In this document: positions 743-5,400 of the stretch, piece by piece
Layout of the letters: the number at the start of each line of letters is the position of its first letter
Position numbering within the stretch: position 1 is the stretch's first letter
DNA from: an uncultured Verrucomicrobiota bacterium
Lineage (GTDB): Bacteria > Verrucomicrobiota > Verrucomicrobiia > Limisphaerales > CAIYYI01
DNA: 47,639 nucleotides
Assembly (NCBI GenBank): GCA_903930345.1
Contig: CAIYYI010000253.1
Location: forward strand, 1 to 47,639
Direction: 5' to 3'
The notes under the pieces: generated by a model
The model's input: the letters and a program-made list of their open reading frames with translations, nothing else
Database searches by the model: none
Told to the model about the DNA's origin: nothing
Made by a program: the position numbers and the translations under genes

Positions 743-1636
743 TTATAGCGCGTATCCAAAAAGTCGCAGCTTGGCCGTCAGCAGCGCGTCCAAAGCCGAC
801 AGGTCTCGCGGATGCACCGAGATCACCTGCTTGCCTTCCTGCTGGTAGAGCATTTGCTTCTTGTACATGCTCATCTTGTAATGCGGCGTGTCCAGCCCCC
901 AGTACTCGATATACACGTCCAGTTCCGGCAGGTAAAAGTCCGGCCGAATCTGGAACTCCGCGATGATGCGGAACTTCGCGTCGTACCGGTAGGCCATCCC
1001 GTGCGCCGTTAGCCACTCCGCAATCCGCCGCTCGCCCAGCGACTGCACCACGGTGCCGTCGATCGCTTCAATGGTCTTGTTGATCTCGACCTGCGTCTCG
1101 AACTTCCGGCGCTCCAGGAACACCTCGTCAAAACACCGGTCGCAATAGACGCGCTGGAAAGCCTGCTGGCTGCGCGCATGTTCCCCGGCGGACACCGCCA
1201 CGTCGCACCGCTGACAGCGGCGCTTCACCCCGGCCAGCGCGTCCTTGGCCGCCTGCTCTATGGCGGCCACCGCCGTTGCGGCCGCCGTGCGCACGTAATC
1301 GCGATGGGCGGGGTTGCGAGCGAGGTCGCGCAGGTCGGCCACGCAGCATTTCGCCGCCGCGCCGTATTTCTGAAGCGCCCGGATGGCATATTGCTGCGTC
1401 TGCGGATGCCGGCCTTCCCGCGCTGTGGCCGCCAGTGCCACGACGGCGGTTTCCGCGTCCGCCCCAAACTGCGCCAGCTTGCCGATGGCAGATGCGGCGA
1501 GCCGCTGAACTTCGTGCGAGGGCAGTCGGAGCAGAGCCACAAGCTCCGGCAGCATCGCCGGATCACCGCTGCGGCCCAGCGCCAGTGCGCGCTGCACTGC
1601 AGCGTGGTGGTCTTTCGGCAACATCGGACTTTTCAT
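743..1636 (-). CDS. HEAT-repeat / zinc-finger / PD-(D/E)XK nuclease-like protein
   Basis: This 297-aa protein has three visible parts. Residues 10-130 are alanine/leucine-rich paired helices that look like HEAT repeats. Residues 141-168 hold a four-cysteine pair (C141xxC144 and C165xxC168) resembling a treble-clef zinc site. Residues 195-297 resemble the PD-(D/E)XK nuclease fold seen attached to some UvrD-like helicases: E202 in SLGERRIAEWL, then RPDFYLPELD with D233, then YIEYWG with E244, followed by lysines 259/260. A DNA-cleaving or DNA-repair role is inferred. The start chosen (ATG at 1636) overlaps the stop of a 30-codon frame as ATGA; the open frame extends to 1861 but that extension is not domain-like. 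The combination is unusual and no exact family is recognised. Confidence 0.75.
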   Translation of the reverse strand: MKSPMLPKDHHAAVQRALALGRSGDPAMLPELVALLRLPSHEVQRLAASAIGKLAQFGADAETAVVALAATAREGRHPQTQQYAIRALQKYGAAAKCCVADLRDLARNPAHRDYVRTAAATAVAAIEQAAKDALAGVKRRCQRCDVAVSAGEHARSQQAFQRVYCDRCFDEVFLERRKFETQVEINKTIEAIDGTVVQSLGERRIAEWLTAHGMAYRYDAKFRIIAEFQIRPDFYLPELDVYIEYWGLDTPHYKMSMYKKQMLYQQEGKQVISVHPRDLSALDALLTAKLRLFGYAL

Positions 1637-1725
1637 GGTGCGTTGGTGGCACTGACTCGCTGCGCTTGCCAGTGCCCTGCCGTTGGCAAGCACAGCAAGA
1701 CAACGAAGAGACGTATTCGGTTCAT
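1633..1725 (-). CDS. possible 30-aa hydrophobic leader-like ORF
   Basis: A 30-codon frame begins MNRIRLFVVLLCLP. Its ATG overlaps the TGA of the methylase remnant upstream (ATGA at 1722-1725), and its own TGA overlaps the ATG of the nuclease gene (ATGA at 1633-1636). It has a basic N-terminus and a hydrophobic run, like a truncated signal peptide. Two stop/start overlaps in a row suggest translational coupling of a former operon. A frame this short could be chance, and no family is recognised. Confidence 0.25.
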   Translation of the reverse strand: MNRIRLFVVLLCLPTAGHWQAQRVSATNAP

Positions 1726-1853
1726 TTCCCAACCTCCTCGACGAGTTTGATTTCGTCCAGCGTGAGGGCGTAGAGGCGATAAACCCGGTCGTCAACTTCC
1801 CACTCCAGGGTGGCTGTGCCAGCGGCGGGATCGGCCCGCCTGTCAGCTTGGAT
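1722..1853 (-). pseudogene. C-terminal remnant of an Eco57I-like DNA methylase / R-M enzyme
   Basis: Reading the minus strand in the frame that stops at TGA 1724-1722 gives about 43 residues ending in TLEWEVDDRVYRLYALTLDE and then IKLVEEVGK. This matches the characteristic extreme C-terminus of large class I N6-adenine methylases of type II/IIG or BREX-like R-M enzymes (pattern E-[IV]-D-x-x-V-Y-x-L-Y-x-L-T-x-x-E-I-x-x-V-E). No start codon or methylase core precedes it. Upstream of about 1855 the frame runs into purine-rich DNA unlike coding sequence. I read it as the stump of a deleted R-M gene. The short length keeps this below certainty. Confidence 0.6.
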
Positions 1854-1861
1854 ATCACCAC

Positions 1862-2435
1862 TACAACAAAGGGTTACGGGCCTTTGATAGAGGAAAACAA
1901 CAGGGGTGAAAAGGGAAAAATGGGGGAAATTCCTGCTCCAGGGTGGATTGGGTGGGAGTATTTCGGGGGGGACAACGACGGATTTCAGAGGGTCGGATTC
2001 GGGAAGGCTTTGGGGATTAAGAGCCTGTCAGAATATTCCGAGGGGCGCTGTTTTCGCAGAAAAGGCGGGATGGCGAGCAACGACGACGGGAGGTGCGAGC
2101 CGCACGGGCCATTACCCGCAGCGGTCGGTGACCGAGGCGCAACGAAGCCAGGCCGCCTTTGCTGCGAAAACCCTCCGGGCGGCGGGTCTTTTGCCTGGGG
2201 CCGGCGTTGGCTCGGCCGTTACAGCCCGCGTTGGGGATGCGCCGGCCTCGCCGCCTTGGCCCCAGCCAAAATCCCTCGCCGCAGCACCCCTCGCAATTTT
2301 TAGACAGGCTCTAATTCACGACCCCGGATCAAGGTCCACGCCATGAACCCAACCACCGCGCGCCAATCTCTCCCCCACTTCAGGCTGGGCAATCCACATC
2401 AGAGCGGCATAATGCGCCGGAACCGAACCCATGAC
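1862..2435. other. intergenic region around the MITE-like element
   Basis: Apart from the palindromic element at 2021-2311, no gene is supported here. 1862-2020 is G/A-rich on the plus strand and begins where the methylase remnant loses coding character, so it may contain the deletion junction. 2312-2435 leads into the glycosidase gene; ATG codons at 2343 and 2412 are in the gene's frame but precede the signal peptide. No promoter could be assigned. Confidence 0.5.
2021..2311. mobile_element. 291-bp MITE-like palindromic element, TAA target duplication
   Basis: The ends are imperfect inverted repeats. The left end GAGCCTGTCAGAATATTCCG and the reverse complement of the right end GAGCCTGTCTAAAAATTGCG, extended to 30 bp, match at 25 positions. 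The element is flanked by TAA at 2018-2020 and 2312-2314, the TNA-type 3-bp duplication expected of IS5-family (IS1031/IS427-like) transposition. Inside, 2050-2068 and 2153-2171 form a second inverted repeat with 18 of 19 bases paired. Smaller hairpins (GTGCG-AGC-CGCAC, CGGTC-GGT-GACCG) sit in its loop. There is no transposase frame, so it would be mobilised in trans. Confidence 0.75.
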
Positions 2436-5400
2436 ATGCAGTTGAACTGGCTTATGAAATCATTGCTGGCCGTCGCCCTCGCGCTTTGGTCCGGCCTGGG
2501 CATCGCCCAGGCCGCCGCCCCCGCCCACATCTGGCTGGAGGGCGAAAGCGCCCAAACCACCTTTAACGTCAAGGTGGCCGGCTGGGGCCGGCCCCATTTC
2601 CTCTCGTCCAGCAACTGGCTGCACGTGAGCGTGGACGAGGCCAACGTGGAGAAAGAGGTGCCCGCCACCGGCATCCTGCTGGCCTACAACTTCACCTGCG
2701 CCAAGGCCGGAAAGTACGAGCTTTGGAACCGCATCGGCTTCGAGTTCGCCCGGTCGGCCTTTGAATGGCGGATGGATGAGGGCGGCTGGCAACTGGTGAA
2801 GCCAGACGAGCTGACCACCGACCTGATGGAGCTGGCGTTTTGGTGCGAGGTCGCCTGGCTGAAAATGGGCGAGCCGGAACTGGCCGCCGGGCAGCACCGG
2901 CTGCAAATCCGCCTCACCCCCACCAAGAATGACAAAGGCAAAACCCAGCGGCTGCTCTACGCCTCGGATGCCCTCTGCCTGCACGAGGGGCCGTTCCAGC
3001 CGAATGGCAAGTTCAAGCCGGGCGAGACCGGCCGCACCCCGGAGGATGAGGCGGCCGCCAAAGTGGTGTTTCAGCTGCCGACAGCCAAACCCGCCGAGCG
3101 CGCCTCGGTGAGCCTGAAGGGCATCTGGGAAATCGCCCGGGATGACGAACAGATGCCCGGGGAAGTGGCGGAGCCGATCCGCACCCTGCCCCGCCAGCCG
3201 GTCTGGCGGGCGATCCCGGTGCCGGCGGATAAAAGCAAGGCGCGCGAGGACCTGATCTTCGCCCACCGCGTGTGGTACCGCACCCGTGTCGCTGTGCCGG
3301 CCAGCCTGTCCGGGCGGGCGTTCACCCTCTCCTTCCCCGGCAACAACCTGAACACGACGGTGTTTGTGAACGGGGAATACTGCGGGTTTGAGAAGAACCC
3401 GTTTGCCCCCTTTGAGGTGGAGGTGACCAAGGGCATCAAAGCCGGGCAGGTGAACGAAATCTGGGTGGGCATCCGCGACGCCTATTACGGGCGCTCAGCC
3501 GATCCGCAACGCCCGCTGAAGCTGCGCAAGACTTTCAACCATCCGCCCGACCTGCTAACGAGGGGGTTCCAGGATCTGGATTACCCGGTGTGGAACTGCC
3601 CGCAATCCGGCATCCTGAACACCCCCACCCTCACGGCAGCGGGCGGGGCCGTTTATGCGGCGGATGTGTTTGTGAAGCCCTCGGTGACGAACCGGCAACT
3701 GGCGGCGGAGGTCACCCTGCGCAACACCGGCACCGCCGCAGCCACGGGCGAGCTGCGCTGGGAGGCGGTAAATGATCAAACCGGCGTTGCCGAGCAGGTG
3801 TTCGCCCCCCAGCCATTCCAGGTGGCCGCCGGGCAAACCCAGATGGTTGCCTTGGCCGGCGCCTGGGCCGCGCCCAAGCTCTGGTGGCCGGACAGCCCGC
3901 AGCTTTACCGCCTGCGCACCGTGGTGACCCTCAAGGGCAAGGCGGTGGACATCCGGGAAACCACCTTCGGTTTTCGTGAATGGCGGCGGGAAGGGACAAA
4001 GTTCACCCTCAACGGCGTGGTCTGGCACCTGTGGGCCGACCTGGTGGGCGAGGGCAAAACCGCGGAGGATTGGCTGGCGGCCTACCGCCGCACCCACCAG
4101 CGCACCGTGCGCCTGGCCACGGCGGGCCAGGCCGGCCATGAATCGCGCTGGCACGGCATGGAAGCCCGGGAGGCCCTGGATTTCTGCGACCGCAACGGGG
4201 TGGTGGTGCGCCGCAACACCACGCTGGACGGGGAGACCATCGGCAACCAATTCTCCGAGGGCGACCCGGAAACCCGCAAACAGCAGGGCGGGTCCGAGCT
4301 CAAGCTGGCGCTGATGAAAAACTGGCGGGACCAGTGCGTGGCCCAGGTGAAGGGGGAGCGCAACCACCCCTCCATCCAGATCTGGTCCCTGGAAAACGAA
4401 TTCGCGTACATCAACCTGATCAACCTGCTCGGCAACTCGCCGCGCATGGACCAGTACGAGGAGGAGATCACCCGCACGCACGACGCGGTGATGGCGGCGG
4501 ACCCGACGCGCTCCGCCATGATTGATGGCGGCGGCGCCACCAAAAAGAACACCCTGCTGGTGCACGGAGACCATTACCTGGCCACGCTGGACAGCCGGTA
4601 TCCGGACCTGGCCTACGAGCCCTTTGTGGAGGGCGGCGGCCGGGGCCGCTGGCGTTGGGACCAGCAGCGGCCGCGCTTCATGGGCGAGGATTTCTTTGCC
4701 AACGGCATCAACCCCGCCGATTACGCGGCGTGGGGCGGCGAGGTGACGTTCCAAGGCAAGGCGGCCACACGGGACGCCATCGCCCGCATCTACCGCATGC
4801 TGACCGAAGGCTACCGCTGGGGCGGCCACTACGCCGCCTGGCACCTCTGGCTGGGCACGGATGGCGCGCCCGCGCAATGGGGGTCCAATGATCCGCGCGC
4901 GGTGTTTGTGCGGCAGTACGACTGGACCTTTGGCTCCGGCCAAAAAGTCCGGCGCACCTTCGGGCTGTTCAATGACACGCAATACGCGCAGCCCCTGGTC
5001 TTCACCCGCAAACTGACGCTGGGCGGCAAGGATGTCCATGCCCGGACCACCACCCACCCGGTCGCCCCCGGCACGGCGGAGAAGTTTGACGAAGAGATTC
5101 TGCTACCCCAAACCGGCACCCGGCTGGAAGGCGAACTCAGCCTTTCCCTGGCCGTGGAGGGCAAGATCGTCTATGAGGACCGCAAAGCCGTGTCCGTACT
5201 GCCGCCCGCCCTGCTCCCGCCCAACGCGCCCCGGAGCGCCGGCCTGGTGGTCTTTGATCCGCAGGGGGAAACCCTGGCGACCCTGAAGGAAATCGGGTTC
5301 TCCTGCACCACGATCACCAACCTGGAAGCCGTCCCGGCGGGCAAGGTGCTCGTCATCGGGCGCGACGCCATCACCGCCGGTGAAAGCACCGCCACCAAAC

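What the first reader, a model, noticed from the sequence alone, without database searches (positions are those of the whole stretch)
2018..2314. 291-bp MITE-like element with nested hairpins and a TAA target duplication
Ends match as inverted repeats at 25 of 30 positions, are flanked by TAA on both sides, and enclose a second 18/19-paired inverted repeat (2050-2068 with 2153-2171) and smaller hairpins. The combination of IS5-like ends and a highly folded interior suggests a non-autonomous element that could also act as a structured RNA or terminator. No transposase is in the window.
Basis: partly seen in the sequence, partly recalled or inferred. Interest (0 to 1): 0.6.

Follow-up and report, generated by a model that had tools for sequence, protein, structure and literature searches.

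The report
Mobile DNA cassette that swaps ends
The 291-base stretch is a small jumping element that borrows an IS5-type transposase, and its doubly folded interior turns up across this bacterial phylum inside other jumping elements with unrelated ends, which suggests a reusable mobile core rather than leftover filler.

Summary
Window 2021-2311 is a MITE: 25/30 matching ends, TAA on both sides, and 23 matching places in its own genome. Relatives occur across the order (87 of 320 genomes). In 101 full-length copies the 3-bp flanks are identical in 74, and 73 of those read TNA, against 0-4 at shifted positions. One relative carries 216 matches to the left end and a 949-bp IS5-family element with matching ends. 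That IS was not found in the home genome.

The larger finding is inside. The interior is an inverted pair of ~90-nt hairpin modules. Fifty of 82 stem pairs show compensatory changes. G-U pairs are no commoner than A-C mismatches, so the pairing looks like a DNA property, which argues against the RNA or terminator reading.

The same module occurs in 129 of 320 genomes of the order and elsewhere in the phylum, inside MITEs with unrelated ends: TNA-duplicating (IS5-type) and TA-duplicating (IS630-type). One genome has both, plus an IS630-type element matching the second. Left and right modules form separate lineages that cut across end types, so the twin core is probably older than its ends. What the core does is not shown; I favour a DNA hairpin that helps mobility with any transposase.

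The parts
2018..2020 (.). left target-site duplicate TAA
   Evidence: sequence; 73 of 101 relatives carry identical TNA triplets at this place
2021..2050 (+). left terminal inverted repeat GAGCCTGTC...
   Evidence: 25/30 with the right end; ends shared by copies across the order
2050..2171 (-). left hairpin arm (module L); sense orientation is the minus strand, model match 2165-2057
   Evidence: inverted repeat; CM R1 match E 2.2e-6; compensatory pairs in helices 2, 3, 5 and 6
2172..2183 (.). spacer between the two arms, part of a small CC/GG hairpin and of the base of the right arm
   Evidence: conserved block in the 35-copy alignment
2184..2275 (+). right hairpin arm (module R), sense on the plus strand
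   Evidence: CM R1 match E 3.2e-22 (this sequence is among those the model was built from); compensatory pairs in helices 9-15
2282..2311 (-). right terminal inverted repeat ...GACAGGCTC
   Evidence: 25/30 with the left end
2312..2314 (.). right target-site duplicate TAA
   Evidence: sequence; as for 2018-2020

Best explanation
A non-autonomous transposable element (MITE) moved in trans by an IS5-family DDE transposase of the kind that duplicates TNA and recognises GAGCCTGTC ends. Its interior does not look like a leftover of that IS. It is a twin-hairpin DNA cassette (module L inverted against module R) that has been passed between elements with different ends, including IS630-type ends with TA duplications. 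Shown here: repeat structure, TNA duplications, order-wide copies, a fitting IS in one relative, a shared core under unrelated ends, and covariation of the stems. Inferred: transposition in trans; exchange of ends by recombination or capture; and that the core is kept because it folds as DNA (cruciform, or single strand at the fork) and so helps mobility, for example by bringing the two ends together or by binding a host protein.
For: Copies in the own genome and in 87/320 genomes and 41/118 genera of the order. Identical flanking triplets in 74/101 copies, 73 of them TNA, with 0-4/101 at shifted positions. In G130, 216 left-end matches with 0 for the control pattern, plus a 949-bp IS whose 260-aa protein hits DUF4096, DDE_Tnp_1 and DDE_Tnp_1_2 and whose ends match the MITE's at 16-17/18. 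Covariation: 95.4% of cells paired, 50 pairs with changes on both sides against 25.2 in shuffles, slid controls at 35-48% paired. Strand test: 34 G-U against 30 A-C in pairs common to both strands, and 31 against 59 when modules are set in one orientation. Module with other ends. IS630-type element with the ends of wrapper B in the same genome G245. L modules of wrappers A, B, D and F group apart from R modules, support 0.97. Model R1, trained only within the order, finds the module in other classes at E-values down to 1e-15.
Against: No matching IS5 element was found in the home genome: 8 DDE_Tnp_1 loci lack the ends and there is no DUF4096 match, though the assembly is 90% complete in 709 pieces. 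No empty site was compared. The benefit of the core to mobility is untested. Compensatory Watson-Crick changes can also arise by palindrome-templated repair without selection. The module tree rests on short sequences, with low support at many nodes. The IS in G130 has unequal flanks (TGA/TAA).
Confidence: 0.75

Rival explanations
1. Ordinary MITE with a neutral interior: the folded core has no function, is kept palindromic only by template-switch repair of quasi-palindromes, and spread under other ends by chance recombination.
For: Watson-Crick exchange without a strand bias is what palindrome-templated repair would give; bursts from one master copy occur (G130).
Against: Loop and non-stem motifs (CGTTG.CTC, ACAG, GCGCCTTGCC) are conserved across classes of the phylum, and the same core recurs under many ends; neutral filler should not be both conserved and repeatedly re-used.
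Confidence: 0.3
2. The element works mainly as a structured RNA, for example an mRNA stabiliser, RNase III site or terminator, next to genes it lands by.
For: Strong folds on both strands. The twin inverted arms give one sense hairpin whichever way it is inserted. Insertions avoid ORFs (16/43 inside an ORF against 82% of random sites) and lie somewhat more often between convergent genes (12/26 against 28%). Bacterial MITEs are known to fold in transcripts (PMC2229807).
Against: G-U pairs are not tolerated better than A-C mismatches in either orientation. No terminator-like site. Only below-threshold Rfam matches. Avoidance of genes is expected for any insertion.
Confidence: 0.12
3. A REP/BIME-like repeat mobilised by a RAYT (Y1 transposase).
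For: Palindromic units in inverted pairs, many copies; Y1-type transposase genes are common in these genomes.
Against: Of 30 Y1 transposase loci scanned, only one (L265, which holds a known wrapper-A copy and another twin element) has modules nearby. TNA/TA duplications and long TIRs point to DDE transposases.
Confidence: 0.04

Closest known systems
Bacterial MITEs (RUP, Correia/NEMIS, ERIC, MITEAba12)
   Same: Short, no gene, terminal inverted repeats, target duplication, thought to be moved in trans by a resident IS with matching ends; strong folds in several (PMC2229807, PMC6382973).
   Different: In the papers read here each family is described with one type of ends. Here the conserved interior is shared by elements with unrelated ends, and it is an inverted pair of covarying hairpins.
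IS5 family, TNA-duplicating type (IS1031-like, from memory)
   Same: 3-bp TNA duplication, GAG-starting ends, DUF4096/DDE_Tnp_1 transposase in a 949-bp IS.
   Different: No module match in any IS locus tested, so the MITE is not a simple internal deletion of that IS.
REP/REPIN/BIME palindromes
   Same: Inverted pairs of palindromic units, high copy number, mostly intergenic.
   Different: Units of about 90 nt, flanked by TIRs and TSDs; no RAYT association.
IS630-derived MITEs such as RUP
   Same: Wrappers B and D have TA duplications and, for B, a matching IS630-type element in the same genome.
   Different: They carry the same core as the IS5-type elements.

Membership tests
MITE | terminal inverted repeats | tested here: met
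   25/30; conserved in 101 copies
MITE | target-site duplication | tested here: met
   TAA here; 74/101 identical triplets against 0-4 at shifted positions
MITE | short, no transposase, multi-copy | tested here: met
   291 bp; 23 matching places in the own genome, some of them partial or the two ends of one copy
MITE | autonomous partner with matching ends | tested here: inconclusive
   found in relative G130, not in the home genome
MITE | empty site in a relative | not tested
   no other genome of the family is held
IS5 family, TNA-type ends | TNA 3-bp duplication | tested here: met
   73 of 74 identical triplets
IS5 family, TNA-type ends | IS4/IS5 DDE transposase on the IS with these ends | tested here: met
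   DUF4096 4e-28, DDE_Tnp_1 3e-25 in L084 of G130
IS5 family, TNA-type ends | transposase acts on this MITE | not testable with these tools
   needs an experiment
REP/BIME | association with a RAYT gene | tested here: not met
   1 of 30 Y1 loci, which holds MITE copies
structured RNA (Rfam) | match to a known family | tested here: not met
   best match at half its gathering score
structured RNA | G-U pairs tolerated better than A-C on the functional strand | tested here: not met
   34 vs 30 and 31 vs 59; random insertion orientation could blur such a bias
intrinsic terminator | GC-rich hairpin followed by a T run | tested here: not met
   0 found, 1.1 expected by chance

The most novel reading that the evidence does not exclude
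The twin-hairpin core is a transposase-independent mobility module: a selfish DNA structure that spreads across a phylum by being re-fitted with the ends of whichever IS5- or IS630-type transposon is active in a genome, and that raises the mobility or persistence of any element that carries it.
Probability: 0.3. Interest if true: 0.85.

Novelty: new variant of a known kind. Interest (0 to 1): 0.62.

Why it matters
MITEs are usually seen as passive leftovers defined by their ends. Here the ends change and the middle stays, across a phylum and in two transposon superfamilies within one genome. If the core helps mobility, it would be a portable module usable with any transposase, and it could explain why some MITEs reach hundreds of copies. 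The claim can be tested directly by swapping cores and ends.

Tried and rejected
Simple internal deletion of an IS: no module match in the 28 IS5- and IS630-type transposase loci. REP/RAYT: rejected. Terminator and Rfam RNA: rejected. Plasmid and viral collections gave no match, with exact or insensitive searches. Searches for a described MITE core shared between different ends found no such report; most subscription journals are not held.

Full report
What is there. Window 2018-2314 holds a 291-bp element with 25/30 matching ends and TAA on both sides, as reported. It lies between a HEAT-repeat ORF on the minus strand (743-1861) and a glycosyl hydrolase family 2 ORF that opens 28 bases beyond the right TAA. 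The ends are the only inverted repeat of that quality and span in the window.

It is a mobile element. The own genome has 23 matching places, four of them full-length and many cut by contig ends. In the order, 87 of 320 genomes and 41 of 118 genera hold relatives; many are full-length, typically 72-83% identical, with well-kept ends. In 101 distinct full-length copies the two flanking triplets are identical in 74, and 73 of those are TNA; shifting the boundary gives 0-4. One genome, G130, has 216 matches to the left end (20 bases, up to one mismatch; 0 for the control pattern) and a 949-bp IS5-family element whose ends match those of its MITE at 16-17 of 18 positions. The home genome shows no such IS, which may reflect its fragmented assembly. 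The order belongs to Verrucomicrobiia, inferred from a contig titled so whose length and copies agree with genome G076 of the order.

The interior. Thirty-five copies below 90% identity fold into a three-way shape: a stem of the two ends, a left arm and a right arm. Of 82 pairs, 50 show changes on both sides (25.2 in shuffles), 95.4% of cells pair, and sliding the partner by 1-3 columns drops that to 35-48%. The two arms are inverted, diverged copies of one ~90-nt module with a kept core. G-U and A-C cells are about equal in pairs common to both strands (34 against 30), and mean fold energies of the two strands are equal. With all modules set in one orientation, G-U is rarer than A-C (31 against 59). 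A transcript-level role should favour G-U on one strand. Caveat: random insertion orientation would blur a strand bias, and template-switch repair of palindromes can also make such pairs.

One core, many ends. A covariance model of the module, trained only within the order, finds it in 129 of 320 genomes and 61 of 118 genera of the order, and in 24 of 388 genomes drawn from the phylum, including other classes, at E-values down to 1e-15. Most of the copies inspected sit between other inverted repeats. TNA-duplicating: GAGCCTGTC (A), TTCCAATGAGC (E1, 9 of 13 with identical triplets) and GGAGGCGG/GGAGCCGG (E2/C, 3 of 5). TA-duplicating: GACCGATTGCC (B, 7 of 7), GTGTCGTGTATC (D, 2 of 2) and GTGTCCCGCGCGG (2 of 3). 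Several further end types were seen, mostly without a duplication test; some of these may be diverged IS5-type ends (matrix). The own genome has four end types around the module (A, E1, E2, E3). G245 carries at least A, B and a third type, and it holds an IS630-type element whose ends match B at 18-22 of 24 positions and which is flanked by TA. Layouts include a single module of about 160 bp and the twin L-R pair of about 270-290 bp.

Which is older. In a tree of 90 modules, all L modules of end types A, B, D and F group together (0.97) apart from the R modules, and B modules fall among A modules. So the twin core is probably older than the present ends, and in G245 a core of A descent appears to have acquired IS630-type ends. 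The alignment is short and many nodes are weak.

How it most likely works. Shown: ends, duplications, multi-copy spread, and a fitting IS in a relative. Inferred: mobilisation in trans by an IS5-family transposase. Also inferred: the core is kept because it folds as DNA and aids the element whatever its ends. Ways this could happen are cruciform or lagging-strand folding that brings the ends together, or a bound host protein. The main rival is a neutral palindrome kept by repair and carried along by chance.

Surroundings. Copies avoid ORFs (16 of 43 inside one, against 82% of random sites) and lean towards convergent gene pairs (12 of 26 against 28%), which is weak. No terminator-like site and no Rfam family above its threshold was found. 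A RAYT link was tested and not found.

Prior knowledge. Bacterial MITEs are described as short, TIR-bearing and folded (PMC2229807), and MITEAba12 is tied to ISAba12-like ends (PMC6382973). Verrucomicrobia are known to hold GTAG REPs (PMC3733652), which are a different kind of repeat. No report of a core shared between different ends was found in the library, but most subscription papers are not held, so novelty is not proven.

Noticed in passing
G000:C366:3608-3652 (L039): A 45-bp derivative in which left and right ends are fused directly and flanked by TTA on both sides; an E3-type module element lies about 120 bp away.
   Followed up: no
L031 about 147-300 and L033 about 80-150: Two copies whose right end runs into a short tandem array of ATGACCTGG-like units, with a changed terminal repeat (GACAGGACCTAA).
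   Followed up: no
window 2312-2365 and G000:C653:1-50: The copy in C653 shares the right flank of the window copy (AATTCACGACC...ATGAACCCA) but not the left flank, as if copies recombined or a larger repeat were present.
   Followed up: no
L265 (G245:C301), 396-1056: Two twin-module elements close together upstream of a Y1-type transposase gene; the only such case of 30 loci.
   Followed up: partly
L253 (G245:C268), 881-3164: An IS630-type element whose transposase gene appears to be interrupted by a second, nested IS630-type element.
   Followed up: partly
101 copies of end type A: Several reading frames are open through the whole element (78 and 76 of 101 copies in two frames) and 73 of 101 lengths are multiples of three, so insertion often would not break a frame.
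   Followed up: partly
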